52,314 nucleotides of DNA from a virus. A program made the translations under genes and the position numbers. Under the pieces are notes generated by a model that saw only the letters and a program-made list of their open reading frames with translations, was not told the origin of the DNA and searched no databases. Below, one piece after another: positions 1 through 52,314 of this stretch. The first letter of the stretch is position 1. The number at the start of each line of letters is the position of its first letter. The stretch covers positions 1 through 52,314 of IMG/VR virus record IMGVR_UViG_3300033150_001973, one strand, 5' to 3'.

Positions 1-114
1 AAAATGGCAGTAGGTAAAATAAGGCATTATTTTACACCCACAATTTACGCAAAGGTGAAGACAACTACTGAAATAATAAAGGCAATGTTAAATTCAGGAG
101 AAATTTTAAAAAAG
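1..114. repeat. Terminal overlap, left copy (circular junction)
   Basis: Bases 1-114 are identical to bases 52201-52314. The repeat lies inside the first part of a small gene whose ribosome-binding site is only seen at the far end of the window, so the ends join into a 52,200-bp circle. A genuine short direct terminal repeat of a linear genome cannot be excluded from sequence alone. Confidence 0.95.
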
Positions 115-11257: not shown

Positions 11258-11407
11258 ATGGAAAAAATAAAACTAAATTTCTTTATCAGTAAAGAGTTAA
11301 AAGATAAATTGAAGGAAAAGGCAGAAAAAGAAGGCAGAACTGTAAGTGATTTAATTAGACAGGCAATAATAGAGTTTTTAAGAAAAGAAAAAGATGAGAA
11401 CTTATAA
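11258..11407 (+). CDS. Ribbon-helix-helix (CopG/Arc-type) regulator (49 aa)
   Basis: The short reading frame starts after AAAAAAGAGGTAGAGAA. The order KLNFFISKEL (strand), a helix of about 12 residues, EGRTVSDLIRQAIIEFL (turn and second helix) is the RHH fold. The next gene, tnpB, starts 14 bases before its stop. It may autoregulate the unit through the palindrome at 11203. RHH genes are sometimes linked to IS605-family elements. Confidence 0.7.
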   Translation: MEKIKLNFFISKELKDKLKEKAEKEGRTVSDLIRQAIIEFLRKEKDENL

Positions 11408-20683: not shown

Positions 20684-21046
20684 ATGGAGAAATTCCAATT
20701 AAAACGGATATTAAAACAATTATTAGCAATTGAAGACCATTTAGAAGCAGGTTTAGAAGACCCAATTGATAGTCCATTATGTATTGATTGTTTACAAGAA
20801 AAACATATACCTCTTTTAGAAATATTATCATCAGAATGTATATCAGGAGTGTGTTCTACTGGTAAAGCAAGAGAGTTAATGAATGAAATATTTTCTTTTA
20901 CTCAAACTCTTAAAAGTGATATTAAAAATCCAACAGAAAAAACTCTAAAAAATCTATTAAGTCAAACAAGAAACTTAAGAAAACAAGTTTATAGTTTAAT
21001 ACAGGAAGGGAATAGTAATGACGAAACAGTTTACATTGAGCCATAA
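20684..21046 (+). CDS. Helical cysteine-containing protein (120 aa)
   Basis: No Shine-Dalgarno signal; the gene is leaderless from the promoter at 20648. Mostly helical, with CIDC near residue 33 and two further cysteines (SSECISGVCSTG). Probably a metal-binding or disulfide helical bundle of unknown function. It overlaps the transglycosylase gene by 29 bases. Confidence 0.6.
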   Translation: MEKFQLKRILKQLLAIEDHLEAGLEDPIDSPLCIDCLQEKHIPLLEILSSECISGVCSTGKARELMNEIFSFTQTLKSDIKNPTEKTLKNLLSQTRNLRKQVYSLIQEGNSNDETVYIEP

Positions 21047-21530
21047 ATTACTACTTACAACTGGGGCTTTACTTGTTATATTCGGATTTACAAAACTATT
21101 ACAAGCAGAACCAATTACTACTACTCCACCTGAAAATTTACCTCAGTCAGTTAAAAGATGGTGGAACTTAATAGTTAAATATGCTAAACAATATGGAGTT
21201 GACCCAAAAGCAATAGCAACTATAATAGAAGTTGAAAGTAATGGTAATCCATCTATTACTGGTTCTTATGGTGAAATAGGACTTATGCAAGTATTACCTC
21301 AAACTGCAAATTCACTTGGATATAATTATACTTTACTTTATAATCCTGAATGGAATATAAAAATTGGAACTGAATATTTTGCTATGCAATATTATAAGTA
21401 TAAAGATTTTTATAAAGCGTTTTATTCCTATAATGCAGGCAGGTATCCTAGAACTGATAGTCCACAGGCACACAGTAACGCAACAAACTATGCAAACAGA
21501 TGTATAACAATATATTCAACACTCGTATAA
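21018..21530 (+). CDS. Membrane-anchored lytic transglycosylase (SLT family)
   Basis: An N-terminal hydrophobic segment (residues about 9-28) anchors an SLT domain. EVESNGNP holds the catalytic Glu (about residue 73), followed by GLMQVLPQTA and FYSYNAGRYP. It cleaves peptidoglycan glycan strands. A short membrane-anchored SLT next to the capsid gene recalls PRD1 P7, a virion membrane enzyme used at entry. The role here is by analogy. Confidence 0.85.
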   Translation: MTKQFTLSHKLLLTTGALLVIFGFTKLLQAEPITTTPPENLPQSVKRWWNLIVKYAKQYGVDPKAIATIIEVESNGNPSITGSYGEIGLMQVLPQTANSLGYNYTLLYNPEWNIKIGTEYFAMQYYKYKDFYKAFYSYNAGRYPRTDSPQAHSNATNYANRCITIYSTLV

Positions 21531-21660: not shown

Positions 21661-21690
21661 TTGACACCCCCTATGAGCAAAGAATAAAAT
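21661..21690 (+). promoter_or_regulatory. Late-class promoter of the capsid operon
   Basis: TTGACA at 21661-21666, 18-base spacer beginning CCCCC, TAAAAT at 21685-21690. It follows a terminator directly and drives the membrane protein at 21727 and the capsid candidate. Confidence 0.75.
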
Positions 21691-21726
21691 GTATATAAAC
21701 TTATGAAAGGAGGTGAAAATATAAAA

Positions 21727-22200
21727 ATGATAGAGAATGCAATTAACACGCTAAACAGTTTTGAAGTAGTTGGACTTCCAATTGGTAAGGCTGTAGGGTT
21801 CAGTTTAGCAGTGGCAACAACTGGAGCAATCAATGAATTACTTGATAAAGTTCTGCCTGCAAATATCCCAAGAATGCCTATACTTACTTCTGGTTTAATT
21901 GCTTACCTTTGCACACTTCCTTTTGTTGAAAGATTTCTAGGTAAAAGCGGTTCAGTTATGCTCTCACTTGGAGCATTGTTTACAGGAATTGAACAACAGT
22001 TTGATTTAAGTGGAAAAATTAAATCTGCTGTAAGTGGACTTACAGCAAGGATTACTCCACCTGCAGTTACTACTCCTGAAACTTCAACTGTAGGATATAT
22101 ACCAACAGCATCTGGAATAGGAACAGCAGGTGAAATTGGAATAGGTCAGTCAGAAGGTATTTCTGATGTTAAGTCAAGATTAAGAATGAATATGAAATAA
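21727..22200 (+). CDS. Polytopic membrane protein with C-terminal IGQS tail
   Basis: I use ATG 21727 because the ATG at 21703 lies within the AAAGGAGGTG signal itself. The N-terminal two thirds hold about three hydrophobic segments (VGFSLAVATTGAI, ILTSGLIAYLCTLPFV, SVMLSLGALFTGI). A Thr/Pro/Gly linker follows, and the end reads IGQS then DVKSRLRMNMK. The same tail type ends the protein at 23318. It is probably a virion membrane protein next to the capsid gene. Confidence 0.7.
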   Translation: MIENAINTLNSFEVVGLPIGKAVGFSLAVATTGAINELLDKVLPANIPRMPILTSGLIAYLCTLPFVERFLGKSGSVMLSLGALFTGIEQQFDLSGKIKSAVSGLTARITPPAVTTPETSTVGYIPTASGIGTAGEIGIGQSEGISDVKSRLRMNMK

Positions 22201-22228
22201 AAAATAGAAAAGGAGGTGAAAAAAAACT

Positions 22229-23227
22229 ATGATAATTCATACTTATACAATGACAGACACAATAAACTTCTCATCAGGAACAACAGTAAGTAAAGATATT
22301 GCAAGACAAGGATACATAACTCACATTGACACTTTACTTAAAGTTGTTTATGATACTGCTTCATCTGTTACAGCAAACGAAGACCCCTTTGCTAGATTGA
22401 TAGATGGTATGGGTATTTCAACAGCAGGAAGATATTACTACAATGTTTCAGATGGAAGACAGGCACTCTTTCTTGGTAGATGTCAATATCAGGATAATAT
22501 CAGAGTTGATAGCATAAGCACATCTGCAAGTCAGAGTGGTATTGTAGATTATATGGCAATACCCATACATCTTGGAGTTCAGTTTTATAATTCATCAGAT
22601 GTGACTGTTGTAATACCTGCTTGGGAACTTTCATCTTTGAAATTTGAAGTTGACTGGGGAACTAATTCTAGTTTAGGAACTGGATATACAGTTAGTGATT
22701 CAACTAAAATGTTCCTTACAATAAAAGAGATACTTCTTCAGGAAGGAGAAACTATAGAGGCAATTATGCCAGCAGGTAAACTCTTACCAAGAATGACCTC
22801 ATCTGAAAAAACTGTAGATAGTGCTTTCAGTAATTTGTCTCTTGAGCAGGATTTACCTGTTGGTGATTTGCTTTCCTGGATACTGCTTGTTGTTTATGGA
22901 AACACTTCTGCTACAAGATGTAATAATCTTGTAACAGAGTTGGCTATTAAGTTCCCAAGGGAAGCAACAACAGTATTTAAGAGTGATTTCTTACCAGAAG
23001 TTACAGCAACAAGAAGAAGATGGGCATTAAACAACGATTATAAAGGGGTTGTATTTCTTCCACTTTCAGAAGTAAGTGGAGATGAACTTGGATATGATTT
23101 GTCAGGGTATCAGGTAGGAGACGCTAAAATATGTTATTCAACTTCTCTATCTGATACAACTGAAGACAGTGCTCAAGCCAATGGTGGAACAATTTACCAG
23201 TTGTTCTACAACATTGGGCTTGGTTAA
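22229..23227 (+). CDS. Major capsid protein candidate, double jelly-roll type
   Basis: The 332-aa protein is almost entirely beta-prone and lacks signal peptide and membrane segments. The order ARQGYITHIDTLLKVVYDT, then IPAWELSSLKFEVDWG, then MFLTIKEI resembles the first jelly-roll of bacterial DJR capsid proteins. The second half has LAIKFPREATTVFKSDFL, a long helix-like stretch, GVVFLPLSEVSGDELGYDLSGYQVGDAKICYS and a final strand. It has its own strong promoter, a good AAAGGAGGTGAAAAA site and a 3' hairpin, fitting an abundant protein. I see no HK97-fold signature. Assignment is by pattern, not alignment. Confidence 0.65.
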   Translation: MIIHTYTMTDTINFSSGTTVSKDIARQGYITHIDTLLKVVYDTASSVTANEDPFARLIDGMGISTAGRYYYNVSDGRQALFLGRCQYQDNIRVDSISTSASQSGIVDYMAIPIHLGVQFYNSSDVTVVIPAWELSSLKFEVDWGTNSSLGTGYTVSDSTKMFLTIKEILLQEGETIEAIMPAGKLLPRMTSSEKTVDSAFSNLSLEQDLPVGDLLSWILLVVYGNTSATRCNNLVTELAIKFPREATTVFKSDFLPEVTATRRRWALNNDYKGVVFLPLSEVSGDELGYDLSGYQVGDAKICYSTSLSDTTEDSAQANGGTIYQLFYNIGLG

Positions 23228-23243
23228 TAAACTACAAAAAAGT

Positions 23244-23285
23244 GGAAGGGTATGAAGGTCTTGTCCCATCCTTCCTAGCCCTTCC
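23244..23285 (+). terminator. Hairpin downstream of the capsid gene
   Basis: GGAAGGG (23244-23250) pairs with CCCTTCC (23279-23285), with a second inner stem AAGG/CCTT. There is no T-run, so it may stabilise the capsid mRNA or attenuate read-through rather than terminate fully. Confidence 0.6.
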
Positions 23286-23317
23286 ATCCTCTTACTAAAT
23301 AGATTGGGAGGGTGGAA

Positions 23318-23647
23318 ATGAAAGAAAAAGAGCAAATGGGTATAGCGATAATAGGACTTCTATTAGGAGCAGTAGTAATTTATTTTCTTACAAGACCTGG
23401 ACAATCCTGGGGTGGAACTATTACACCTGGCACTACACCAGGAGGTCAACTCCCAGAAGGAGCATTAGGAGTAGTTGAAATTAAAGGAGTTGGAAAATTC
23501 TATCCAAGAAGTAGAGAAGAATTATATGAATTGCTAAAACTTAAAGCAATATATGAAGGAGTTTCTCAACTTCCAATATTCAGGTCTAATACACCAATTG
23601 GGCAACCAGCAAGTATTAAGGAAAGATTGAGACAAAATATGAAATAG
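23318..23647 (+). CDS. N-anchored membrane protein with IGQP-RLRxNMK tail
   Basis: ATG 23318 follows GGGAGGGTGGAA. One N-terminal membrane segment (MGIAIIGLLLGAVVIYFLT) precedes a Gly/Thr/Pro linker and a small domain (GVVEIKGVGKFYPRSREELYELLKL). The tail is PIGQP then SIKERLRQNMK, closely matching the tail of the protein at 21727. The two flank the capsid gene, so a capsid-membrane link is plausible. Confidence 0.65.
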   Translation: MKEKEQMGIAIIGLLLGAVVIYFLTRPGQSWGGTITPGTTPGGQLPEGALGVVEIKGVGKFYPRSREELYELLKLKAIYEGVSQLPIFRSNTPIGQPASIKERLRQNMK

Positions 23648-23663
23648 GTAGGGTGAATGTATT

Positions 23664-24758
23664 ATGAAAGAAAAAAAGGGCAGTTTACTTTTATGGATAC
23701 TAGCAGGATTGGCTGGATATATATACTTAAAAAAAAGAGGATTTGAGTTTCCAACAATCTTTGGGATAACAGAAGAACCTATAAAATTACCTCATATAGA
23801 ACCACCTGAAACTGTCTCACCACAACCGCCAGAAACTACAACTAAGCCATCAGAAACTACTACTACGACAACTACTACTACGACTGAACAACCAGAAACT
23901 CAAACTCCAATACCTACACCAGAACAAACACCTACTAAAACTTTCACTATAACTATATACTGGAAAAACGCAGAAAAATTTGAAGAATTATGTGAACAGA
24001 ATAATATCAAACACGAAGTAGCTGGTTATCCTGATAGGTCTCACATAAAATATAAAATTGAAGGTGTTGAAAAGATAATTAAGTATAAAATACTTCCAGA
24101 AGTTAAAAAATTGGAAAAACAGAGACAACCTAAAGTAGTTATTGGTTCTGGAGGAGAAATTCTACCTATAATATCTGAATCAAAAGAAGAAAATATAAGT
24201 ATAGTAAATCAGAAATTTAAAGATTTTGCAGAAGATTTAGGAAATAGTAAAGTAAAAGTATTGTTAGTTATAGATACTTCAGTATACCAAAAGTTTTTAT
24301 CAGATTTCCAAAAAACAAAAGAGACAGATAAGATACCATTAGATTATACTCCTGAAAAATCACAGGTATATTATAAAATAGAAATTGAAACAAATTCTTC
24401 TCTAGCAAATTACTTTAAAGAACTAAATTGGGAAGTTGATAGAATAAAACTTAAACAGTTGAAAATACCTGTATCAACGGAAACTGATAAGAAAAAGGAA
24501 GTAATAATCATTCCGACATATAACTGGGGTGAGGCAACAATTATATTTGCTAAATATGGAGTAAAGTGGAAAATCTTATCTGTTTTTGTATATAGACCAA
24601 TATTCTTAATAGGTGACAGGGATTATATGTTCACTTTTATAGATAATTTCATAAAAGAAAATAAAGATGAAATAATTGTCAGAAAAAGACCTTATATAGT
24701 TGGTAATAAACTTTACAATGCTATTTTAATAAGTAAAGGAGGGGCAAATGGGAAATAA
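23664..24758 (+). CDS. N-anchored protein with Thr/Pro-rich stalk (364 aa)
   Basis: An N-terminal membrane segment (LLLWILAGLAGYIYL) is followed by FGITEEP, similar to the LFGxT post-membrane element of the proteins at 24748 and 39827. A Thr/Pro/Glu stalk including a run of ten threonines spans about residues 45-95. Two or three alpha/beta domains follow (TFTITIYWKNAEKFEELCEQN; VKVLLVIDTSVYQKFL). The stalk suggests surface exposure; function is unknown. Confidence 0.65.
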   Translation: MKEKKGSLLLWILAGLAGYIYLKKRGFEFPTIFGITEEPIKLPHIEPPETVSPQPPETTTKPSETTTTTTTTTTEQPETQTPIPTPEQTPTKTFTITIYWKNAEKFEELCEQNNIKHEVAGYPDRSHIKYKIEGVEKIIKYKILPEVKKLEKQRQPKVVIGSGGEILPIISESKEENISIVNQKFKDFAEDLGNSKVKVLLVIDTSVYQKFLSDFQKTKETDKIPLDYTPEKSQVYYKIEIETNSSLANYFKELNWEVDRIKLKQLKIPVSTETDKKKEVIIIPTYNWGEATIIFAKYGVKWKILSVFVYRPIFLIGDRDYMFTFIDNFIKENKDEIIVRKRPYIVGNKLYNAILISKGGANGK

Positions 24759-27030
24759 GACTGGAGAGGAAAAAAAGGTAATATTATTTGGGGCTTTAGG
24801 GATAGGACTTTTATTATTTAAGAATAAATTATTTGGGATAACTGTAACTGATGTAGAAAATAGAATTAAAGAAGTTAATGACAAAATAGATAAATTGATA
24901 GAAGAAGCAAAAAGAACTCTTAACGAAGAACAAGCAAAGTTCCAGAATAAAGTTGCACAATCAGAAGAAACTATTGCTAAAAAAATACAAGAATACGAAA
25001 AGGCACTTGAATTACAGAGACAACAAATAAGCGATTTAGTAAAGAAACAAGAGGAATTAGCAAGGCAAAGAGCAGAACAAAGAAGTAAAGAAGTAGAAGC
25101 GAATTATCTTGAAGTTATGGCACAACTTAAAGAGGCAAAACTTAAGGAAGGAGAATTACTTGCTAAAATAAATAAAGAAAAACTTGAAGAAGCAGAAAAC
25201 AAAGTTTTACAAGAAGCACTTGCTAATAAAATAGCAGGTATTAAAGAAGCAATAGCCAGAGAAGAAAAAAACCTTGCAGAGATAGAGAAACAAAAAAATC
25301 TTGACGCTTCAGCCATTCTACAAAAACAGGCAGAAGCAAAGAGGAGATTATCAGAATTATTACAACAGCAGTCAAAACTCAAAGGAGAAGTAGAACTTTT
25401 TGAAGTAGCAGTTAAACTTAGTGAAGATTATGCAAAGATGGCTAATGAGGCAAGAACAAAGTTGGCAGAACAGGCAAGTGAAGCAAGAAAAGCATTGGCT
25501 AAACAACTTGAAGAAGATATAGCAAAACAGGCAGAATTAGCAAGTAAAGCAAGATTGCAATTAGCAGAACAACAGAGACAATTAGCAGAAGATTTATATA
25601 AAAAATCTCTACAATATGCTTCAGATTTAGCAACTGAAGCAAGTAAAGCAAGAGAAGAACAAGCAAAAATACTAAGAGAATTTGCTATGGAATTAGCAGA
25701 GAAAGAACACGAATATTCTACAAAATTGGCTGAACAAGCAGAACAAGCAAGATTAAAACAGGCAGAGTTGAACAGACAAGCGAGAGAAAATTTAGCAAAA
25801 GCAATGCAGGATTATACAAAAGAATTATATAATAAACATCAAGAAATAATTGAAGCATTACAGAATAAGATGAAAATATATGATGAGCAAATAGTTAATT
25901 ATAGAGCAGATGTAGAAAGAATAACAGAGGAATATAGAAAAATCAGAGAATTAGAACTTGCAGAAATAAAAAGAATAAGAACGACAGTTCTATTAAGAGG
26001 TGATTTAAGTGGTGATGGTAAAATAGATGTAACAGATTTACAAATACTACAGAAAATAAATAAAGGTGAACCATTTGAAAGAAAAGGACTTACATATAAA
26101 CCACCTTATCCATCGTGGATTATAAATTTAGCAGATATGGATTTAGATGGAATTGTATCTGATAGTGATATAAATAGGTTAAAAGAAATTATATCTGGAA
26201 CAAGAAAACAAATAACCGAAACCATACAATTTACTCCATTACAAACGGGATATTTGAATTATCTATCACTTGCACAGAGACATAAATTAGATGTTTTGAA
26301 TGCTTATATTGATGGTATGTATAGAGTAGTTATTGTATTTGGTTTTGATGACGATATATTTAAGTATAAAGAAGAAGGTGGAGAATTTATAGCAGAAATA
26401 AAATATCCAGAAGGACTATATTATAAAATTGACCGACAAGGACTTTGGGGAGTTACTTATGACCATATATGTCCTTTTTGCACAGATAAATATTATGCAC
26501 AACAATATAGAGAGGAAGAATATATGCCACCTGCAAATGTAGCACCTGAATTGTATAATAATATCAAACTTTTAAATGAAATGGGATACAAAATACTTAT
26601 AGGAAAAACTGTAGGTAGACTTCCTCCATATGATTATCACGGCAGATTTTTCACTATTACTTATCTATCTCCTCTTTCCAAAGAAGCCATTATAGATGGT
26701 TTTTACTTAACAAAATATGGTCGCTCTTATAAAGAAAATGGAACGTATGTAAATTTTAATTACTACTCACTTGGTTATCATAAACTTAAAGATATTGAAC
26801 AAAAATACAAAGTTAAAGTAACCATAAGAAGAAGTGAAAGTAAAACTAGGCTATATCGTGTAAAAAGTTTTAACTCACAGTATGTAAGATTATATGGTGC
26901 AAGTGGTAAACTAACAGAGGTTTATAAATATATTCCAGAAAAGGAACTTTATATATCTGGAATAGAAGCAAATATAGATGGTTTTATAACAGAAGGAAGT
27001 TTGCCTTGCTTAACACAGGTAGTTGCATAA
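24748..27030 (+). CDS. N-anchored long coiled-coil protein with dockerin-like domain
   Basis: A membrane segment at residues about 10-25 ends with LFGITV. A coiled coil of roughly 370 residues with Ala/Glu/Gln heptads follows. Residues about 417-485 hold two dockerin-type calcium-binding repeats (GDLSGDGKIDVTDLQILQKI and DMDLDGIVSDSDINRLKEII). The last 270 residues form a globular region with CPFC. The coiled coil is clearly paralogous to that of the protein at 39827. It may be a virion spike, tether or internal rod. Confidence 0.7.
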   Translation: MGNKTGEEKKVILFGALGIGLLLFKNKLFGITVTDVENRIKEVNDKIDKLIEEAKRTLNEEQAKFQNKVAQSEETIAKKIQEYEKALELQRQQISDLVKKQEELARQRAEQRSKEVEANYLEVMAQLKEAKLKEGELLAKINKEKLEEAENKVLQEALANKIAGIKEAIAREEKNLAEIEKQKNLDASAILQKQAEAKRRLSELLQQQSKLKGEVELFEVAVKLSEDYAKMANEARTKLAEQASEARKALAKQLEEDIAKQAELASKARLQLAEQQRQLAEDLYKKSLQYASDLATEASKAREEQAKILREFAMELAEKEHEYSTKLAEQAEQARLKQAELNRQARENLAKAMQDYTKELYNKHQEIIEALQNKMKIYDEQIVNYRADVERITEEYRKIRELELAEIKRIRTTVLLRGDLSGDGKIDVTDLQILQKINKGEPFERKGLTYKPPYPSWIINLADMDLDGIVSDSDINRLKEIISGTRKQITETIQFTPLQTGYLNYLSLAQRHKLDVLNAYIDGMYRVVIVFGFDDDIFKYKEEGGEFIAEIKYPEGLYYKIDRQGLWGVTYDHICPFCTDKYYAQQYREEEYMPPANVAPELYNNIKLLNEMGYKILIGKTVGRLPPYDYHGRFFTITYLSPLSKEAIIDGFYLTKYGRSYKENGTYVNFNYYSLGYHKLKDIEQKYKVKVTIRRSESKTRLYRVKSFNSQYVRLYGASGKLTEVYKYIPEKELYISGIEANIDGFITEGSLPCLTQVVA

Positions 27031-27343: not shown

Positions 27344-27832
27344 ATGCCAGGAATGAAGCCTAGAATAGGAGCAAACATAGGAACAAGAAACATAGGACAA
27401 TCAAAAAGACCTTCTCCACAAACTTCTAAACCATTAGGACAATCAATAAAACATTCTCCAAGAGTTTCAAGACCATTAGGACAATCTTCAAAAGTTGTAA
27501 AAGACGTTCAGCAGAGATTATATGAACTTGGATATAATGATGTATTAGTTTCAAGTTCAAGAAAAAAGGACGGGACTTGGGATGGAATTTTAGGACAGGG
27601 GACTATGGCAACAATTAAGAAATTTCAACAGGATAGAGGATTACAGGTTACAGGTATGCCAGATACACCTACTTTACAGGCACTTGGTATAATATCTACT
27701 CCACCTCCACCAAAACCACCTCCACCAAATAAAGAAGCAATTGTTGACTGGGTAAAGAAAAATGCTATCTGGATAGGAATTATCTTAATGCTGGTAACAG
27801 TTATAACCCTTATAAAAAAGGAGAAAAAATGA
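27344..27832 (+). CDS. Tail-anchored peptidoglycan-binding protein with three GQS motifs
   Basis: The N-terminal 50 residues are basic and contain one IGQS and two LGQS spaced 13-14 residues apart. A PG_binding_1 domain follows (VKDVQQRLYELGY ... DGTWDGILGQGTMATIKKFQQ ... GMPDTPTLQALG). After a Pro-rich linker a C-terminal membrane span (WIGIILMLVTVITLI) ends in KKEKK. This inverted order fits a virion membrane protein contacting the cell wall. Confidence 0.75.
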   Translation: MPGMKPRIGANIGTRNIGQSKRPSPQTSKPLGQSIKHSPRVSRPLGQSSKVVKDVQQRLYELGYNDVLVSSSRKKDGTWDGILGQGTMATIKKFQQDRGLQVTGMPDTPTLQALGIISTPPPPKPPPPNKEAIVDWVKKNAIWIGIILMLVTVITLIKKEKK

Positions 27833-28359
27833 AAGCACCAAGAAATAAAAGATTAATGTCAAAAGCCATTGGACAAAGTTATTTACAACCACCAGATTTA
27901 GATTTATCTCCACCTGGTTTTAATTTCGGTAATGGAACTTATTTACAACTGCCAGATTTAAATTTTTCTCCTCCTGGTTTTGATATTCCAACTTGGAATA
28001 TTCCTGGATTTGGAACAAGTTATGTAAAATTTGACCCATCAATACTTCAGGGAATACAGAATATAGGAACTGAAGTGGCACAGCAGGGTGGAACTTGGGG
28101 AGATTGGTTTAAAAATCTTTTACAGACAGGACTTACAACTGCAACACAACTTTATTTGCTTAAACAACAAATGAGAGCAATGGGAAAAAGTGAGACAGAT
28201 AAAGTAACTCCACAAGATACTTCTGCTCTTACAACTCAATTATATGCTATGCAAGCACAACAGCAGAAAGAACAGCAAAAAATGTTTCTTATACTCGGTA
28301 TAGGAGGACTGTTTCTAGTGTTAATTATAATGATGTTTACTATGATGAGGGAAAAATGA
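27829..28359 (+). CDS. Tail-anchored protein with N-terminal AIGQS (176 aa)
   Basis: AIGQS is at residues 13-17 after a basic start. Two imperfect Pro/Leu/Asp repeats (LQPPDLDLSPPGFNF and LQLPDLNFSPPGFDI) follow, then a helical domain, a Gln-rich coiled coil and a C-terminal membrane span (MFLILGIGGLFLVLIIMMF). Function is unknown. It overlaps both neighbours by 4 bases. Confidence 0.7.
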   Translation: MKAPRNKRLMSKAIGQSYLQPPDLDLSPPGFNFGNGTYLQLPDLNFSPPGFDIPTWNIPGFGTSYVKFDPSILQGIQNIGTEVAQQGGTWGDWFKNLLQTGLTTATQLYLLKQQMRAMGKSETDKVTPQDTSALTTQLYAMQAQQQKEQQKMFLILGIGGLFLVLIIMMFTMMREK

Positions 28360-28997
28360 GGAGAACTACACCAATTGGCAGACAAAAATATAAAGTGAAG
28401 GCAATAGGGCAATCAAATGTTTCATATTCAAAGGAGTTAATTGCACAAATACAGAAACGGTTATATAATCTTGGAATTGAAAGAGAAACACTTGTAAAGT
28501 CATCTTTAAAATCAGATGGGACTTGGGATGGAATACTTGGAGAGGGAACTAAAACTGCTATAAGAAAATTTCAAGAAATGAATAATTTGCCTGCTACAGG
28601 TATTCCAGATAATAAAACATTAGAATTACTTGGTTTTCCTTCTAGTAATGAAACTAATAATGAAACAGTAATTTTACCTTATTTGCCAATAGCAAGAGAA
28701 AGAGCAGAACAAGAATTTGGAAAATATGCTGGTGAACTTGAAGAAGGAGAAACCTTGTATGAGTTCCTTACAAAACTATATAAAAAGCATAAAATAGGAT
28801 TTTATGATATTGATAGATTTATAAGAGTTGCACAAAATATAGGAATAAAACCAGACGAAGAATTATCAAAGGAAAAATTACTTGCTTTATTAGCACGATA
28901 TAAAGAACTGCGTGTATTAAATTGTTTACTTTTTGCTACTATTGGTATTGGGGCTTTAGCACTAATTATTACCTTTTTACCAGAAAGAAAGGGATAA
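28356..28997 (+). CDS. Tail-anchored peptidoglycan-binding protein with AIGQS
   Basis: AIGQS lies at about residues 16-20. A PG_binding_1 domain (IAQIQKRLYNLG ... DGTWDGILGEGTKTAIRKFQ ... GIPDNKTLELLG) closely matches the protein at 27344. A helical domain follows (PYLPIARERAEQEFGKYAGELEEGETLYEFL), then a C-terminal membrane span (LLFATIGIGALALIITFL). The two are paralogous wall-binding proteins. Confidence 0.75.
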   Translation: MRRTTPIGRQKYKVKAIGQSNVSYSKELIAQIQKRLYNLGIERETLVKSSLKSDGTWDGILGEGTKTAIRKFQEMNNLPATGIPDNKTLELLGFPSSNETNNETVILPYLPIARERAEQEFGKYAGELEEGETLYEFLTKLYKKHKIGFYDIDRFIRVAQNIGIKPDEELSKEKLLALLARYKELRVLNCLLFATIGIGALALIITFLPERKG

Positions 28998-29000
28998 AAA

Positions 29001-29486
29001 ATGAGAGTAGGAGTAAAGGAGAAACTTGATTTATTTGAAAAAGTAGCAATTATAAAATCAGTTATTGAAAAGTGGTATAATACAAAAGTTATAGATAATG
29101 TAATTAAATTGATAAAAAAAAAGTATGGGGGACTTCCACCTTACGAAAAAGATAAAGCACTTCTACTGGCAAAATGGGTAAAAGAAAATATAAAATACAT
29201 TCCTGAACCACCACATTTTAATGACAGAGTTAAAACACCTGTTGTAATAATGAAATGTAGATTTGGGGACTGCTCGGAACACGCTATTTTGTTAGGGTGT
29301 CTTCTTAAAAGAGAAAATATACCTTTTGTTTATGCTCTTGTTTCTACATTACCAAAAGAACCTAATGTTATAAATCATATATATTTAGAAGCAAGAGTTG
29401 ATGGAGAAAAAATACCTCTTGATACAACAAGCACAACTCCTCTGGGGAAAGAGCCAGTAGAATTTGCAAAAGTATATTTTAAGTGA
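29001..29486 (+). CDS. Transglutaminase-like cysteine protein
   Basis: The core has FGDCSEHAILLGCLLKREN (Cys about 91), NHIYLEARVDG (His about 126) and IPLDTT (Asp about 141), the Cys-His-Asp triad of the transglutaminase/papain-like fold. No signal peptide is seen. Such proteins act as peptidases or amide-forming enzymes. It could process or crosslink virion proteins; a wall-peptide role is also possible. Confidence 0.75.
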   Translation: MRVGVKEKLDLFEKVAIIKSVIEKWYNTKVIDNVIKLIKKKYGGLPPYEKDKALLLAKWVKENIKYIPEPPHFNDRVKTPVVIMKCRFGDCSEHAILLGCLLKRENIPFVYALVSTLPKEPNVINHIYLEARVDGEKIPLDTTSTTPLGKEPVEFAKVYFK

Positions 29487-30970: not shown

Positions 30971-31408
30971 ATGAGAAAATTTTTAAGCATAATTATAACT
31001 CTACAAATAACGATAATATCTACTATTTTGTTATTCGGAATAATTAAAGGTAATAAACCAATTGTTGAACCTATTCAAGCACAAGGATTTAATAGAGTTC
31101 TGATATATGATAAAACTGTTGTTGATACAATAATTAACTATACTTTAACAGACGCAAATACAGAATATTCAATAACTCTGCCTTCTAGAACAATTGCTTT
31201 TGAAATACAACCGAGAGATACTTCTGTTGATTTAAAAATGGCTTACTATCCAGGTGAAAGTGGAACTAATTATTGGACTATAAGAGGAAACGGTGGTTGG
31301 TATTGTTTTTACTTTCCAAATTATAATTATTCAGGAAAAACTATATATTTACAATCAGCAACAGCAGGAGCAGTAGTTGAAATACATATTGTAAGAAAGT
31401 TATATTAA
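30971..31408 (+). CDS. Signal-anchored beta-rich protein (145 aa)
   Basis: An N-terminal hydrophobic segment (FLSIIITLQITIISTILLFGII) precedes a beta-sandwich-like domain (EYSITLPSRTIAFEIQP; WTIRGNGGWYCFYFPNYNYSG). Probably exported or membrane-anchored with the domain outside. It lies just upstream of the beta-helix spike and may be its base. Confidence 0.6.
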   Translation: MRKFLSIIITLQITIISTILLFGIIKGNKPIVEPIQAQGFNRVLIYDKTVVDTIINYTLTDANTEYSITLPSRTIAFEIQPRDTSVDLKMAYYPGESGTNYWTIRGNGGWYCFYFPNYNYSGKTIYLQSATAGAVVEIHIVRKLY

Positions 31409-31418
31409 AGGAGGTAGA

Positions 31419-34361
31419 ATGAAAAAAGTATTTTTTATATTAACATTTTTAGCAACTCTATTTTTCTTTTCAAAAGTATGTTATGCTCCTAGTAGAGGTG
31501 GAAGTATTGGTGGTGGAGATATGGAAAAAGCAGTTTATGATACAGATAATAATAGTATTGTAGATAAAGCAGAAGGATTGACAGAAAATGTTGTGACAGA
31601 AACAACAATTGTGGATAACACTATAACAGAAACAGATTTATCTTTTAGTCCATTGAATACAGACCAAACTTCTCCACAAGAAATTGTTAATGGTATACCA
31701 CTACTGAATACAACACCAAGTGGAAGTCCTGATATTAAATCACTTGTGAATAAACAGTATATAGATTGGGCTATATCATCTCTCGGAGCAAGTTATTATA
31801 TGTATAGAGACACAGACGCAACAGGGTATAAAACCTGCTATTTAAATCCATCTACTAATTCAGAAACTTCAATTGTGGCTTCAAGTTTATCTGATAATGA
31901 TTATATTGGTGGTTGGATTTCTGCAATAGGTGAAGCACCACAAAAATTGTTGAAAGGAGTATATAACTGGTATATTACTATGGAAAGAACTGGTGGAAAC
32001 AGAACATTAAGAGTTTATTGGAAGTTATATGAAAGAACTGCAGGTGATACAGAGATTGAAATTGCTACAAGTTCTTATTCAAATGAAATTACAAGTAGGG
32101 CTTCTTATATTGTTCCATTACAGTTAGACAGTGATTATATTCCTGCAAGTGATAGTAGAATAGTTGGAAAGTTGTATGCCGATGTAAGTGGGACTGGAAA
32201 TGCTCCAGAATTAACTATTTATTTTGAGGGTAATACTTCAAGTCGCTGGGAGATACCAGCGAATAGTGAGGTATTCCAAAATATTTTTGTCCCTTATGAT
32301 GGGGCAACTTCAAACATAGATTTAGGAAGCAAAAACCTAACTACAAATGGAACAATAAATGCTGGGACTTTACAGGTAAATTCAGTAGATGTTTTAAAAG
32401 TGAGTGATGATATATCATTATTAAATAATGATGCAGGATATATTACAGATGAGAGTGACCCTGTGTGGTCTTCAGAAAAGAGCAATTACTTTGATAAAAC
32501 TACTGATACCACTGATGATTTAAGTGAAGGAGCAACTAATAAATTTTATTCAACAAGTTTATTTAATACAGATTTTGCAAATAAAAGTATAGGCGATTTA
32601 TCAGATGTGATAATAAATTCTCCGAGTGATTGGCAAGTATTAAAATACGATAACGGAAAATGGGGAAATCAGTATGTAAATTTAAGTGAGTTAGGGGATG
32701 TATTTATAAATTTCCCTTCAAATGAAGAAGTGTTGAAATATGATAGTGGAACTGGGAAGTGGGTAAACGGAACGGTATCTGGCGGAGGACAAGAATTATA
32801 TGATTGTGTTGTTGCTTCTGATGGCAGTGGTGATTATACAACATTACACGACGCAATTCAGAATGGAGAAACTTCCATATACATTAAAGATGGGACTTAT
32901 ACAGAAACAAATATTACATTACAATTAGGAGGGACTAAACCAATTACTATCATCGGAGAAAGTCATAATGTGATAATAAATTCTGGAACTGATGGGTTAT
33001 TTTCTGTGCCATCAAAAACTATAGTTACTTATGCAGGGACTGTTAGTTTTGACTTAGGGTCAACAACAGTTACTGGAAATGGGACTTCATTTGTAAGTTC
33101 AGGAGTAAAAGCGGGAGATTATCTATATATTAATAATGGTGATGAGGCAAATGTTCCTTATGACTATCTTTTTAAAATTAAAAGTGTAGATAATGAGACA
33201 CAGTTGACTTTGTATGAACCTATAAGCTGGCCAGGGATGAATTCTATGACAAATTTCAATTATGAAATCAGAAGAATATCAAGAGCAGTAGTTATGAAAA
33301 ATTTAACATTAGAGGGAAAATTGGTAAAAGAGGAAGAAGATTATAATAGAGTAGTAGCAGGCTGGAAGATAGAAAATTGTATATTAAATAACTTCCAATT
33401 TAGACCATATAATGCGGTTGCACAGAATAATTCAGTAGTCAATTGCAGTGGTAGAAATGTCTGTATAAGATTAGGAAAAAAAGCAATCGTTAAGGGAAAT
33501 AGGTTTGTCTTAAGTGAGGTTGGAGTAGGCATTGATGTTTATTCTTATAGCGTAGTTGAGGGAAATACTTTATTTTCTCCTTGTAATAAGACCGCTATTG
33601 GAGTGTATGGTTATACTGTAGTAAATAATAATACAATTTTTTCTGGATGGGATTTTACAAATATGATTTACTCTACTGGTAGCGGTATTTATACATATAA
33701 CTCTGCTCGTAACATAATAATAAGTGGAAATACTATTGCGGGGAAAGAGTATGGAATTCAAAGTGATTATACCCCCTATGTAATAATCACAGGGAATTCA
33801 GTAAGAGGATGTAGTAAAAATGGTATAATATCCGAAGGGCAGTATGCTGTGATTTCAGGAAATATAGTGAAAGAATGCGGAGAAATGGGTTCTGCTGAAA
33901 GTGATATGGCTGGAATTTATGTTGGAGGTCTGGGTAGTAGTGTGGTAGGAAATGTTTGTGAAGATAATGCAGGAGATGGTATTTATATTGGTAATAGGTG
34001 TTCAGTAGTGGGAAATACCTGTAGAAATAATGGAGATAAAGGAATAGATGGAGATACAGGTTATAGGGGCAGTGTATTTATAGGAAACAAGGTAGATAAC
34101 AATACAAATAATTCTAACTATACGAGAAATTTGCCATCGTCAATTACAGTTGGCAGTTCTCCGTTTACTTATCAAAATAATTCAGGTTATGATTTGATTA
34201 TTCTGATAAGTGGTGGAACTGTAAGTTCTATTGAATTTAGCAGGGATAACTCAAATTGGTATGATGTGGGGCAAACAAGTGGAATGTTTATTTTACCAGA
34301 TGGGGATTATTTAAAAATTACTTATACAGAAGCACCAACAATGACAGCAATACAGAGGTAA
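31419..34361 (+). CDS. Secreted right-handed beta-helix spike (980 aa)
   Basis: It has a classic signal peptide (MKKVFFILTFLATLFFFSKVCYA). An N-terminal part resembles phage fibre proteins (DMEKAVYDTDNNSIVDKAEG; LSDVIINSPSDWQVLKYDNGKW). From about residue 470 a pectate-lyase-like beta helix starts (VVASDGSGDYTTLHDAI, IYIKDGTYTE) and continues with NSVVNCSG, GNTI and GNSV rungs to about residue 900. A small C-terminal domain follows. Likely a receptor-binding or glycan-degrading spike. A signal peptide on a spike is unusual and implies export before assembly. Confidence 0.8.
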   Translation: MKKVFFILTFLATLFFFSKVCYAPSRGGSIGGGDMEKAVYDTDNNSIVDKAEGLTENVVTETTIVDNTITETDLSFSPLNTDQTSPQEIVNGIPLLNTTPSGSPDIKSLVNKQYIDWAISSLGASYYMYRDTDATGYKTCYLNPSTNSETSIVASSLSDNDYIGGWISAIGEAPQKLLKGVYNWYITMERTGGNRTLRVYWKLYERTAGDTEIEIATSSYSNEITSRASYIVPLQLDSDYIPASDSRIVGKLYADVSGTGNAPELTIYFEGNTSSRWEIPANSEVFQNIFVPYDGATSNIDLGSKNLTTNGTINAGTLQVNSVDVLKVSDDISLLNNDAGYITDESDPVWSSEKSNYFDKTTDTTDDLSEGATNKFYSTSLFNTDFANKSIGDLSDVIINSPSDWQVLKYDNGKWGNQYVNLSELGDVFINFPSNEEVLKYDSGTGKWVNGTVSGGGQELYDCVVASDGSGDYTTLHDAIQNGETSIYIKDGTYTETNITLQLGGTKPITIIGESHNVIINSGTDGLFSVPSKTIVTYAGTVSFDLGSTTVTGNGTSFVSSGVKAGDYLYINNGDEANVPYDYLFKIKSVDNETQLTLYEPISWPGMNSMTNFNYEIRRISRAVVMKNLTLEGKLVKEEEDYNRVVAGWKIENCILNNFQFRPYNAVAQNNSVVNCSGRNVCIRLGKKAIVKGNRFVLSEVGVGIDVYSYSVVEGNTLFSPCNKTAIGVYGYTVVNNNTIFSGWDFTNMIYSTGSGIYTYNSARNIIISGNTIAGKEYGIQSDYTPYVIITGNSVRGCSKNGIISEGQYAVISGNIVKECGEMGSAESDMAGIYVGGLGSSVVGNVCEDNAGDGIYIGNRCSVVGNTCRNNGDKGIDGDTGYRGSVFIGNKVDNNTNNSNYTRNLPSSITVGSSPFTYQNNSGYDLIILISGGTVSSIEFSRDNSNWYDVGQTSGMFILPDGDYLKITYTEAPTMTAIQR

Positions 34362-34383
34362 TTAACTAAAAAGGAGGTTGATT

Positions 34384-35082: not shown

Positions 35083-35643
35083 GTGTCAATTAAACTATGT
35101 ATAGACGCTGGGCACGGAGGTAGAGACAGTGGAGCAGTTGGAATTTTAGTGGAGAAACAAATAACTCTTGCTATTGCTTTGAAAGTTAAAAAATTAAGTT
35201 TAATGAGAGAATATAAAAACAGGATAGAAATAATTATGACAAGAGAAGAGGATAGATACATTTCATTAAAGGACAGATGTAAAATAGCAAATGAGAATAA
35301 ATGTGATTATTTTATTTCTATTCATTGCAACAGTTCAAAAAAGCCAACAGAATTTGGTGGTATAGAAGTTTTTTATTATCGTGGTTCAAAAAAAGGAAAT
35401 TATTTAGCATATCATATAATAAATAATATTCTAAAGAGAATATTTATATTAGGCAACAGAGGAACAAAAAGAGGAAATTTTTATGTTTTAAGGCATACAA
35501 TAATGCCTGCTTGTTTAGTTGAATGTGGATTTGTAAATAATGAAACGGACGCCGAAATTCTGACAACTTATCAGTATGAGTATGCAGAAGGAATTATAAA
35601 CGCTGTTATAAATGCTCACAATACCTGGAGGAACAATGAATAA
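35083..35643 (+). CDS. N-acetylmuramoyl-L-alanine amidase (Amidase_3)
   Basis: GTG start with GGAGGTG upstream. Zinc ligands are visible in CIDAGHGGRDSG (His about 11), Glu about 24 and FISIHCNSS (His about 81); the catalytic Glu is in LVECGFVNN (about 147). It cleaves the peptide from muramic acid. No signal peptide, so it needs a holin to reach the wall; holin-like genes lie at 34784 and 37017. It is the likely endolysin. Confidence 0.9.
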   Translation: MSIKLCIDAGHGGRDSGAVGILVEKQITLAIALKVKKLSLMREYKNRIEIIMTREEDRYISLKDRCKIANENKCDYFISIHCNSSKKPTEFGGIEVFYYRGSKKGNYLAYHIINNILKRIFILGNRGTKRGNFYVLRHTIMPACLVECGFVNNETDAEILTTYQYEYAEGIINAVINAHNTWRNNE

Positions 35644-46526: not shown

Positions 46527-47684
46527 ATGAAAAAAGCAAGCGATTTTGAACTGATACAGTTAGCAGAGACATCAAAGGATTTAAAGACCCTTCTTGAAGT
46601 ATCTGGATATTCATCAGTAGGGGAACTTATAGATAAACTAAAAAGTATTCTATCAAAGTATGGATATAAGACAATACCAAAATTGCCATTAAAATTGCCA
46701 GATGAAGTAAAAAGTATGATTTATGAAGATTTGTTGACAAAAGAAACTGCTGGTGGTGAAGTAGCAGGAATAGATATAAGGGAGCAGATATTAGGTGGGT
46801 ATGCAGAAGAAAATTTTAGTGAATTTATACCAGAAGGAGATTTTTTTGAAAGAGAAGGATATAAAGAAATAGAAGTAGCATTAAATTCTGGCTTTTCAAC
46901 ATATCTTGTAGGAGTGGCTGGAACAGGGAAAACGACATTTGCTTCCTGGTATGCTAAAAAATATAACAAACCTCTTCTTGTTATAAATTGTGATATGGGT
47001 GGATTAAGAGACCTACTTGGAGTATGGACAATCGTAACAGAAGAAAAAGCAAAAGGAGAACAGGGAGAACTGCTTAAATTCAACTTTGGATTACTGGCAA
47101 AATTTATTGTGATACCAAGTGTTATTCTTTTTGATGAGGTAAATTCGTTAGAACCAGAGGAATTATTTTTTTTACACGAATTACTAAATAATAGGAGGGT
47201 ATTTATTAAAGACGCTCCAAATTTCCCCCCAATAAATGCAAATCCAGAAACAAAATTTATACTTGCTTCAAACCCATCTTCTTATTTAGGAACTAAACCA
47301 TTAAATATAGCGTTGTTATCAAGAGTAGTGGTCTTTGAAATTGAGCCATTCACAAAAGAAGAAATAAAACAGATAATTCCAGAGGCAGATAAAGATATAC
47401 TTTCCTGTTATGAAAAAGTTAATAACTACTTAATTGAACATCAAGTAGAAACTGTCTTTTCAATAAGAGAGATACAGCAATATATTACATTGTATAAAGA
47501 ATACAAAGAAAAAGTAGAACTTACAGAAGAAGAGAAAAAGCAGGGAATAGAAACAAATGAAGTTAAGGCAAAATCCCTTGCTATAGAGACCGCTTTTTTG
47601 AATAAAGCAAAACAGAGTTGCGAGGAAGACGAATACAACGAATTAAGAGCAATTGTGTCGGAACAACTTGGAGTAGTCATCTAA
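46527..47684 (+). CDS. MoxR/CobS-type AAA+ ATPase
   Basis: An N-terminal adaptor domain (residues 1-70) is shared with the upstream gene. The AAA+ core shows Walker A GVAGTGKTT (about 129-137), Walker B VILFDEVN (about 199-206), a sensor in ILASNPSSY and an arginine in LLSRVVVFEIEPF. This is the MoxR/CobS/AAA_5 style. Such ATPases work with VWA proteins to remodel or load substrates. It is the only P-loop ATPase I find in the genome, so a packaging or assembly role is possible. Confidence 0.85.
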   Translation: MKKASDFELIQLAETSKDLKTLLEVSGYSSVGELIDKLKSILSKYGYKTIPKLPLKLPDEVKSMIYEDLLTKETAGGEVAGIDIREQILGGYAEENFSEFIPEGDFFEREGYKEIEVALNSGFSTYLVGVAGTGKTTFASWYAKKYNKPLLVINCDMGGLRDLLGVWTIVTEEKAKGEQGELLKFNFGLLAKFIVIPSVILFDEVNSLEPEELFFLHELLNNRRVFIKDAPNFPPINANPETKFILASNPSSYLGTKPLNIALLSRVVVFEIEPFTKEEIKQIIPEADKDILSCYEKVNNYLIEHQVETVFSIREIQQYITLYKEYKEKVELTEEEKKQGIETNEVKAKSLAIETAFLNKAKQSCEEDEYNELRAIVSEQLGVVI

Positions 47685-47686
47685 AA

Positions 47687-49459
47687 ATGTTTGAGCCATT
47701 TTTGAAATACATAGCGGATTTAAAAGATGTAATTGTAAAACCTGTTAAAAGTCATACTGCTTCTGCTGACATAGAGAAAAAAACAATTTTTATTCCTGAA
47801 AACTTACCAAGTGAATTTTCTTATATAATAGTTACTTTACTTCTCCACGAGGGTTCTCATATAAAATATTCAGAGAAACTCCCTGAGGAGTGTGCAAAGA
47901 TAGTTTCAGATACAACAACGGAACTACTATTAGACATAGATATAAGGAAGCACTTAATTCCACATTTAAAATACTTCATTGAAAGATGGGAAAAAAAGCA
48001 TAATGAAAAACTTAATTTTGATATACTCACTTATAAAAGAGTTTTTGATAATATAACAAGTTTTTTTGATTACAACCTTCCAGAGTTTCAACATTCTATA
48101 TGTAATATAATTGAAGACATAAAAGTTGACGCTATTGCTTTTAAACTGCACAAATATATAGAGTGGTTTTATTATCTATTAAGCAGAAAAACATTCCCTT
48201 CCTACAAAAAGAAAATAGCCCAACAAGAAGATTTATTAAAAGGTTTAAATATAGAAGATACAGTCAATATGAGAAAAGACGATTTGGTAAGATATTTATT
48301 TATTGTTTTAGATAGTTTACTTACTCAATTAAAATTACTCATAGTATATGCAAAGAAAGATGAACCACATTTTAAAAATTATTTTAAAAATTTTGAATTG
48401 TTATATAATAAAGAACTTGATAGATTAGGATTTTTTACAAAGAAGGATTTTGAAGAATTGATAGATTTTTTCTCTGAAATACATAATAAGATAAAAAGTT
48501 ATGATACCCGTTCTGATTTATTCTTTTTTGAATATACAACAACTGATTTTTATAATAAATGTATAAGAAAGATGATTGAATTATTATTTAACCCACAACT
48601 TTTTGAATTTTTAGCAGTGGCTATTCCTGAAAAGATTGCACTTGATAAAACAACCGAACCTCTTTTCTTCACTATGGAAGATGTGTTTATAGTTTCAGAG
48701 ATATTACAAGCAAGAATGACAAGGTTTAGAAGTTTTCCAGAAATAACAGAAGCATTTAAAAAAGAGTTTTTCCCTAGTGGTATTTTACTTTCAGTAGAAG
48801 ATGTATATACAGGTGAGATAGAAGCAGATAAAGATTGGGAGTATGGAGATTTGATTGACCCATATATATATTATTATAGTGATGTGAAATATAAATTAAA
48901 TTTTTTATTTAGAGTAGCGTGGAAACTGGCCAGGGCTTCTTTTATAATGGCTTTACCGAGTAAAGCAATAGACGCATTAACAAGAGCAAGAAGCAGTGAA
49001 GTTAATAAATTTATTTATGCAATTGGAAGCAACTTTTTTTCTCTACCACCGAGAGAAGAGGAAAGCATAAAAAAGTTGAATACACGTTCATTTATGATGA
49101 TAAAATATATTATTGCTTGCATAGTATTGGACATTATTCAGAAATACAATAAAAAGCAGTGGTATAAACTATATAACCAGAAAAAAGAAGTATCAGATTT
49201 TTATATAGAGAAATTAAATAAGTATATAGAGAAAATAGAACACAAAGAATTAGAAGCAAAAATAACAGATATGGCAGTAGAAAGCACACTCTTTTGTAGG
49301 ATAGGCAAAAACGTTGATGAAATTGCTAAAAAACTTATAAAGAATATGAGATATGTAGCAGATGTATTTATTGGAAAAAAGGATTATGTAAAAGCAGTAG
49401 AAAGGTTTAAGAATAAAGTTGATACGATGAAAAATATTATAAATATAGGAGGTTCATAA
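47687..49459 (+). CDS. CobT-N-like metallopeptidase-type protein (590 aa)
   Basis: ATG 47687 starts just after the ATPase stop. VTLLLHEGSHIKYSE gives an HExxH zinc motif (His 54, Glu 55, His 58), and ICNIIEDIKVDAIAFKL resembles the EDxRxE block that follows HExxH in CobT-type/VWA-linked proteins. The long C-terminal part is helical. It directly precedes the VWA gene, so the pair looks like a CobT protein split in two. Peptidase activity is not certain. Confidence 0.65.
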   Translation: MFEPFLKYIADLKDVIVKPVKSHTASADIEKKTIFIPENLPSEFSYIIVTLLLHEGSHIKYSEKLPEECAKIVSDTTTELLLDIDIRKHLIPHLKYFIERWEKKHNEKLNFDILTYKRVFDNITSFFDYNLPEFQHSICNIIEDIKVDAIAFKLHKYIEWFYYLLSRKTFPSYKKKIAQQEDLLKGLNIEDTVNMRKDDLVRYLFIVLDSLLTQLKLLIVYAKKDEPHFKNYFKNFELLYNKELDRLGFFTKKDFEELIDFFSEIHNKIKSYDTRSDLFFFEYTTTDFYNKCIRKMIELLFNPQLFEFLAVAIPEKIALDKTTEPLFFTMEDVFIVSEILQARMTRFRSFPEITEAFKKEFFPSGILLSVEDVYTGEIEADKDWEYGDLIDPYIYYYSDVKYKLNFLFRVAWKLARASFIMALPSKAIDALTRARSSEVNKFIYAIGSNFFSLPPREEESIKKLNTRSFMMIKYIIACIVLDIIQKYNKKQWYKLYNQKKEVSDFYIEKLNKYIEKIEHKELEAKITDMAVESTLFCRIGKNVDEIAKKLIKNMRYVADVFIGKKDYVKAVERFKNKVDTMKNIINIGGS

Positions 49460-50421
49460 TGTTAATTGGTCTAACAAACGGATATACTACACTCTTTGGT
49501 GGTGTAGGTGAGGGCGTTGGTAAGGGGAAAGAAAAAAGCAAAAAAGAGGAAGGAAAAGAAGGGGAAGAACAAAGGAAATATAAGCAGGTAGATGAAGAGA
49601 TTGAAAAAGGAGAAAAAAAACCCTTTTTTTCTCCTGGCAAAGACCCAGTTTTAGATGATATTAACAAAGTTTTAAAAGAAATCTTTGAGGAATTGGAAAC
49701 AAGAGAAATTAAAATAGATAAAGATGTATTTTTAAAGATATTAAAGAAAGCATATATACCTACAAAAGAAAGAAGAAAAATAGACACAAGAAAATTAGCA
49801 AAGATATATACAAAGCCGACTGAGATTTTTAAAAGCGAGAAGAAAAAGAAATACAAAAACACAATCTTTACATTTATGATAGATATGTCAGGAAGTATGG
49901 CTGAAACTTTGGAGGGTTCAAATATATTAAAGATAAAGTTTGTAAGAGATATTTTAAGGGCTTTTTTAGATGCAACAAATGAAATAAAAAAAACTACAAT
50001 AAATCTATATACTTGTGTAGTGGGTTTTGAGGATATTGGATATTTAATACAGAGAGCAACATCAAGAAAAGTGAATACAGAAAAGATTTTAGAGGAAATA
50101 AGAGCAGGAGGAAACACTTATTTTGCAGATGGATTGAAGGTCTATTTTGAAGAGATAGAGAAATTTAGGAATGCAAAAAATATTTTGATAGTGCTTTCAG
50201 ATATGATGTTAGATGAAGAAGACGCAAAAGAAAGTAAAGAAATATTGAAAAAGATAAAAAAAACTTCAGTAGATTTTCAATATGTGATTTTTATTGTAAA
50301 TGAAAAAGGGGAAACAGAAGAAAAAGTAAAAAATTTATTCGGGAGATATTTAATATATGTTAGAAATGAGAGAGAATTTATAAGGGCTTTCTTATCAGAA
50401 TTTTCAAAAATGATTTTATAA
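49459..50421 (+). CDS. VWA-domain protein (MoxR partner, CobT-C-like)
   Basis: A Gly/Lys/Glu-rich linker (residues about 14-60) precedes a VWA domain with the MIDAS motif DMSGS (residues 142-146). GGNTYFADGL carries the conserved Thr, and VLSDMMLD the Asp. Binding of a metal-dependent partner is expected. It ends the three-gene AAA+/metallopeptidase/VWA operon. The start overlaps the upstream stop. Confidence 0.85.
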   Translation: MLIGLTNGYTTLFGGVGEGVGKGKEKSKKEEGKEGEEQRKYKQVDEEIEKGEKKPFFSPGKDPVLDDINKVLKEIFEELETREIKIDKDVFLKILKKAYIPTKERRKIDTRKLAKIYTKPTEIFKSEKKKKYKNTIFTFMIDMSGSMAETLEGSNILKIKFVRDILRAFLDATNEIKKTTINLYTCVVGFEDIGYLIQRATSRKVNTEKILEEIRAGGNTYFADGLKVYFEEIEKFRNAKNILIVLSDMMLDEEDAKESKEILKKIKKTSVDFQYVIFIVNEKGETEEKVKNLFGRYLIYVRNEREFIRAFLSEFSKMIL

Positions 50422-52200: not shown

Positions 52201-52314
52201 AAAATGGCAGTAGGTAAAATAAGGCATTATTTTACACCCACAATTTACGCAAAGGTGAAGACAACTACTGAAATAATAAAGGCAATGTTAAATTCAGGAG
52301 AAATTTTAAAAAAG
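52201..52314. repeat. Terminal overlap, right copy (circular junction)
   Basis: Identical to bases 1-114. It contains the first 37 codons of the gene at position 4 and, just before it, that gene's ribosome-binding site. Confidence 0.95.

What the first reader, a model, noticed from the sequence alone, without database searches (positions are those of the whole stretch)
22229..23227. Capsid candidate with double jelly-roll features
A single 332-aa, almost all-beta protein has its own strong promoter, good ribosome-binding site and 3' hairpin. Blocks such as ELSSLKFEVDWG and GVVFLPLSE...GDAKICYS occur where DJR capsid proteins have their conserved strands. Flanking genes encode membrane proteins and a lytic transglycosylase, as in PRD1-like viruses.
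Basis: inference. Interest (0 to 1): 0.85.

Follow-up and report, generated by a model that had tools for sequence, protein, structure and literature searches.

The report
Large virus genome with double-jelly-roll capsid
The flagged gene encodes a capsid protein related to those of two small heat-loving archaeal genetic elements, but it lies in a complete 52,000-base genome of bacterial character, about three times the size of those relatives' genomes and with no recognisable DNA-packaging motor.

Summary
The 332-aa ORF is real and the capsid reading holds. No database search found it, and AlphaFold without relatives failed (pLDDT 30). Direct comparison with known capsid proteins decided the case. 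It aligns colinearly over nearly its full length with the solved double-jelly-roll (DJR) capsid protein of archaeal virus STIV and with that of Thermococcus element pTN3 (Smith-Waterman 147 and 160; no shuffle above 123). A STIV1+STIV2+pTN3 profile picks it out of all window proteins plus 2000 shuffles at E 2.9e-9 (next: 0.23). It shows no similarity to PRD1, PM2, FLiP or P23-77 capsid proteins. The record is a complete circular or terminally redundant 52.2-kb genome with bacterial-type expression signals and peptidoglycan enzymes. It has no portal, terminase or HK97 match and, unlike every described STIV-group genome, no recognisable FtsK/HerA packaging ATPase; its only Walker-A ATPase is CobS-like. 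A peptide, IGQS, recurs in many membrane-anchored proteins, including both genes flanking the capsid gene; I propose it docks them to the shell. One detail is wrong: the strong promoter precedes the upstream membrane-protein gene, so the two form an operon. This is a large, divergent variant of a known capsid lineage.

The parts
22229..23227 (+). Major capsid protein, STIV-group double jelly-roll, 332 aa
   Evidence: SW 147 (STIV1) and 160 (pTN3) against shuffle maxima of 117-123; profile E 2.9e-9; hhalign 93 %
22209..22219 (+). Perfect Shine-Dalgarno sequence AAAGGAGGTGA of the capsid gene
21661..21690 (+). Promoter-like site TTGACA-18-TAAAAT serving the two-gene unit
   Evidence: Consensus match 11 of 12 in an intergenic gap; not more such sites than by chance in the region
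21727..22200 (+). Abundant membrane protein (two hydrophobic stretches), C-terminal IGQS tag ending RLRMNMK; first gene of the operon
   Evidence: Perfect Shine-Dalgarno sequence at 21706; hydropathy
23228..23312 (+). Hairpin region after the capsid gene
   Evidence: z -2.97
23312..23647 (+). Membrane protein with N-terminal span, C-terminal IGQP tag ending RLRQNMK
21018..21530 (+). Lytic transglycosylase with N-terminal span
   Evidence: Pfam SLT E 2.8e-24; alignment with PRD1 P7 z 23
27344..27832 (+). Tail-anchored peptidoglycan-binding protein, three N-terminal GQS tags
   Evidence: PF01471 E 1.1e-14
27829..28359 (+). Tail-anchored protein with N-terminal IGQS tag
28356..28997 (+). Tail-anchored peptidoglycan-binding protein with N-terminal IGQS tag
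   Evidence: PF01471 E 7.4e-14
29001..29486 (+). Transglutaminase/papain-fold enzyme behind the tagged cluster
   Evidence: PF01841 E 8.5e-7
31419..34361 (+). Beta-helix protein with N-terminal hydrophobic stretch, candidate receptor-binding spike
   Evidence: PF13229 E 1.6e-9; PHROG tail fibre E 4e-10
35083..35643 (+). N-acetylmuramoyl amidase-type endolysin
   Evidence: PHROG endolysin E 4e-45
46527..47684 (+). CobS-like AAA ATPase, the only protein of the genome with a Walker A motif of the form GxxxxGK[ST]
   Evidence: phrog_249 E 9e-25; motif scan
49459..50421 (+). VWA-domain protein paired with the AAA ATPase
   Evidence: PF13519 E 3.6e-6
1..114 (.). Direct terminal repeat, identical to 52201-52314

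Best explanation
22229-23227 encodes the major capsid protein of a tailless, probably membrane-containing icosahedral virus whose host is probably a bacterium. It is a divergent STIV-group (STIV/pTN3-like) double-jelly-roll protein. Shown by tools: homology to the STIV and pTN3 capsid proteins over nearly the full length; a complete 52.2-kb genome; no tailed-phage head genes and no recognisable FtsK/HerA packaging ATPase. Inferred: trimers of the protein form pseudo-hexameric capsomers around a lipid vesicle; the vesicle carries the many single-span viral proteins, several of them docked to the shell by an IGQS peptide; the transglycosylase and the peptidoglycan-binding proteins open the wall at entry or exit; the beta-helix protein is a receptor-binding spike; DNA is packaged by an unrecognised motor, possibly the CobS-like ATPase, or without one.
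For: Smith-Waterman against STIV1 147, shuffle maximum 117 (2000 shuffles of STIV1, 2000 of the candidate), reversed 43, in four scoring schemes. Against pTN3 160, composition-preserving window shuffles at most 123. STIV1+STIV2+pTN3 profile E 2.9e-9 among window proteins and 2000 shuffles, next 0.23; hhalign 93 %. Among 79 window proteins only this one matches STIV (z 10.5, next 3.0). STIV itself is a solved coat protein (2bbd, 3j31); pTN3 is annotated as a double-jelly-roll capsid protein. No terminase, portal, HK97 or FtsK match in six frames. More than ten single-span membrane proteins, transglycosylase and peptidoglycan-binding proteins surround it.
Against: No structure model of the protein itself. 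Identity to STIV is only about 24 %, and a partial STIV1 relative (MN091908) gave no significant score. All described STIV-group genomes carry a packaging ATPase (PMC5894146), absent here. The lipid vesicle, the IGQS docking and the spike role are untested.
Confidence: 0.9

Rival explanations
1. The protein has the double-jelly-roll fold but is not the shell: it is a decoration, spike or adhesin, and the true shell protein is another, unrecognised protein of this genome.
For: About half of the structural-block proteins have no family match, and this one could not be modelled.
Against: Near full-length colinear homology to two major capsid proteins; perfect Shine-Dalgarno sequence and shell-like composition; no other window protein matches a double-jelly-roll profile.
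Confidence: 0.06
2. The record is a plasmid-like or decaying element that carries a capsid gene but forms no particles.
For: No recognisable packaging ATPase; an integrase is present; its relative pTN3 is recorded as a plasmid.
Against: The structural block is large and intact, with lysis enzymes and strong translation signals on the capsid gene. Odin- and FLiP-group genomes also lack the ATPase (PMC8328091), and FLiP is an isolated virus.
Confidence: 0.12
3. A tailed phage whose HK97 capsid, portal and terminase are too divergent to see, with this protein in an accessory role.
For: Replication genes (DnaD-like, DUF6475) are shared with temperate tailed phages.
Against: No portal, terminase, HK97 or tail-assembly match in Pfam or PHROGs; capsid homology lies with STIV.
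Confidence: 0.04

Closest known systems
Thermococcus nautili pTN3 major capsid protein (KF527230; STIV group, TKV4/MVV-like)
   Same: Best pairwise score (160); colinear; lacks most of the C-terminal helix of STIV, as the candidate does; shares the strand motif RVDWNTN / EVDWGTN.
   Different: 18.3-kb archaeal element with an annotated FtsK/HerA packaging ATPase; the genome here is 52.2 kb and has none.
Sulfolobus turreted icosahedral virus (STIV1/STIV2) coat protein B345/A345
   Same: Near full-length homology, about 24 % identity; solved structure.
   Different: STIV has a C-terminal extension (residues 316-345) missing here, a packaging ATPase (B164), an archaeal host and a 17.7-kb genome.
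PRD1 (Tectiviridae)
   Same: Transglycosylase P7 aligns with the 21018-21530 product (z 23); many small membrane proteins.
   Different: No capsid-protein sequence similarity (z 0.2), no packaging ATPase P9 homologue.
FLiP and Odin groups
   Same: Double-jelly-roll capsid protein and no detectable packaging ATPase (PMC8328091).
   Different: FLiP is a 9.2-kb ssDNA virus with no capsid-protein sequence similarity (z -0.6); Odin genomes are 7-11 kb (PMC5894146).

Membership tests
STIV-group double-jelly-roll capsid proteins | Sequence homology of the capsid protein over its length | tested here: met
   Profile E 2.9e-9, hhalign 93 %, SW 147-160 above all shuffles
STIV-group double-jelly-roll capsid proteins | Two stacked jelly-rolls seen in the structure | tested here: inconclusive
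   AF2 without relatives pLDDT 30; fold inferred from homology to 2bbd/3j31
STIV group (viruses) | FtsK/HerA-type packaging ATPase in the genome | tested here: not met
   Six-member profile: best window hit E 0.057 (the CobS-like AAA), while left-out true members score 3e-6 or better; PF01580 silent; one Walker A only
STIV group (viruses) | Genome of roughly 10-20 kb | tested here: not met
   52.2 kb with terminal repeat
STIV group (viruses) | Lipid vesicle beneath the shell | not testable with these tools
   Only indirect: more than ten small single-span proteins in the structural block
Tectiviridae (PRD1-like) | Capsid protein P3 homologue | tested here: not met
   SW z 0.2; pairwise comparison is insensitive at this distance, so remote kinship is not excluded
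Tectiviridae (PRD1-like) | Membrane-associated lytic transglycosylase | tested here: met
Tectiviridae (PRD1-like) | Packaging ATPase P9 | tested here: not met
Caudoviricetes (tailed phages) | Terminase, portal and HK97 capsid protein | tested here: not met
   PF03354, PF04860, PF05065 silent in six frames; no PHROG head or tail-assembly match in about 60 proteins

The most novel reading that the evidence does not exclude
A lineage of large bacterial double-jelly-roll viruses that has replaced the FtsK/HerA packaging motor of its relatives (by a CobS-like AAA/VWA pair or a motor-free mechanism) and ties a large set of membrane proteins to the shell with a common IGQS peptide tag.
Probability: 0.3. 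Interest if true: 0.87.

Novelty: new variant of a known kind. Interest (0 to 1): 0.72.

Why it matters
The published survey of prokaryotic double-jelly-roll viruses describes genomes of about tectivirus size, 10-15 kb (PMC5894146), and a later preprint gives under 50 kb for their whole phylum, eukaryotic members included (PMC11071308). A complete 52-kb genome with a STIV-type capsid would show that this shell scaled up in prokaryotic viruses too, which bears on how large eukaryotic viruses with the same capsid fold arose. It also raises a testable question: how a shell of this lineage is filled without the usual motor. The capsid protein is so divergent that no database search used here finds it, so more such viruses may be hidden among unclassified records.

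Tried and rejected
Searches with the protein alone in Pfam, PHROGs, PDB sequences, INPHARED, PLSDB, IMG/VR and GTDB contigs: nothing. Four degenerate DNA patterns for presumed capsid motifs in IMG/VR: all hits were chance frames or unrelated proteins. Searches for relatives through the AAA ATPase, TnpB and a repeated C-terminal domain, and a Walker-region pattern: nothing. AF2 on the single sequence and on its two halves aligned to each other: pLDDT about 30, so no fold search was run on meaningless models. Internal repeat between the halves: none detectable. Comparison with PM2, PRD1, FLiP and P23-77: no similarity. Rfam and tRNA scans: nothing.

Full report
What is there. The ORF at 22229-23227 is open, starts with ATG and has a perfect Shine-Dalgarno sequence. 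A hairpin follows it (z -2.97). Its upstream neighbour has a likely start at 21727 rather than 21703, because the codons before 21727 contain another perfect Shine-Dalgarno sequence. That gene is preceded by the only strong promoter match of the stretch outside coding sequence. The protein is poor in lysine and glutamate (7.8 %) and rich in serine and threonine (20 %), unlike nearly all other proteins of the genome.

The record. The window is a whole IMG/VR record with an exact 114-bp terminal repeat. Across the junction the next gene follows in order with a ribosome-binding site, and base composition is even (27-33 % GC in 4-kb steps), which argues against a chimera. All but one of the genes I annotated lie on one strand. 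Expression signals are bacterial (Shine-Dalgarno sequences, sigma-70-like repeats), as are the peptidoglycan enzymes and the DnaD-like and DUF6475 replication genes, the latter found in temperate gammaproteobacterial phages. The host itself is unknown.

Finding the relatives. From this protein alone every search was empty, and AlphaFold without relatives gave a meaningless model. I therefore took known tailless-virus capsid proteins from annotated genomes and compared them directly. PM2, PRD1, FLiP and P23-77 gave nothing; STIV gave a Smith-Waterman z of 10.8. Controls: four scoring schemes with 2000 shuffles of each partner, none reaching the real score, and the reversed sequence far below; all 79 window proteins against STIV, next best z 3.0; shuffles within windows of 20 and 10 residues, none reaching it. 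A second family member, the pTN3 capsid protein, was then found through STIV and gave an even higher score, 160. A profile of STIV1, STIV2 and pTN3 retrieves the protein with E 2.9e-9 against a best shuffle of 0.23, and hhalign gives 93 %. The alignment is colinear from residue 3 to 331. A partial relative of STIV1 (MN091908) did not score significantly, which shows that the signal sits near the limit of pairwise detection. The fold is thus assigned by homology to a solved double-jelly-roll protein, not by a model of this protein.

What is missing. Only one Walker A motif of the form GxxxxGK[ST] occurs in ORFs of the genome, in the CobS-like AAA protein. A six-member packaging-ATPase profile that recovers each left-out member at E 3e-6 or better finds nothing significant here; FtsK, terminase, portal and HK97 models are silent. 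All described STIV-group genomes have the packaging ATPase (PMC5894146), while the Odin and FLiP groups lack it (PMC8328091). The protein also lacks the C-terminal stretch of STIV (residues 316-345), as pTN3 largely does, so anchoring of shell to membrane must be done by other proteins.

A possible anchor. [ILV]GQ[STP] occurs 12 times in the window proteins against 1.0 expected (maximum 6 in 2000 shuffles), mostly in the structural block. It sits at the N-terminus of proteins anchored by a C-terminal span (27344, 27829, 28356) and after the span in proteins anchored by an N-terminal one (23312, 37990). Both genes flanking the capsid gene end in similar peptides, IGQSEGISDVKSRLRMNMK and IGQPASIKERLRQNMK. 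In PRD1-type assembly the cytosolic face of the membrane becomes the face towards the shell (established knowledge), so a tag on that face could dock to the capsid protein. Cleavage or cross-linking by the adjacent transglutaminase-like protein (29001-29486) is an alternative. Both are inference. The peptide is not enriched in STIV, pTN3, PRD1, PM2, P23-77 or FLiP (0-2 hits each).

Verdict. The finding is right in its core: a double-jelly-roll capsid protein. It is better placed in the STIV group than near PM2 or PRD1. What makes it noteworthy is the setting: a complete 52-kb genome of bacterial character without the lineage's packaging motor, and without recognisable close relatives in the collections searched.

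Noticed in passing
19819-39826, several genes; 45066-45323 (IGES variant): The tetrapeptide IGQS and close variants recur at the exposed ends of many membrane-anchored proteins, 12 against 1.0 expected; a possible docking, cleavage or cross-linking site.
   Followed up: partly
46527-50421: CobS-like AAA ATPase, a 613-aa protein without family match and a VWA protein in a row: a MoxR/VWA-type module and the only P-loop ATPase of the genome.
   Followed up: partly
40946-41151 and 43031-43236: An 80 % identical repeat encodes a shared C-terminal domain in two membrane-anchored proteins (39827-41491 and 42800-43585); no relatives found.
   Followed up: partly
24748-27030: A 760-aa membrane-anchored coiled-coil protein carries a weak dockerin-type calcium-binding domain (E 1.2e-4).
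   Followed up: no
30971-31408, 31419-34361, 34378-34782, 37459-37974: Four genes have signal-peptide-like N-terminal hydrophobic stretches, unusual for phage virion genes, which hints at export to the cell envelope.
   Followed up: no
11394-12530: A TnpB-family gene (best plasmid hit 37 % to Methanomethylovorans) in the early region; no Rfam match nearby.
   Followed up: partly
44694-44954: Small unknown protein with a perfect Shine-Dalgarno sequence and the highest GC content of the genome; no relatives in INPHARED. Possibly another abundant virion protein.
   Followed up: partly
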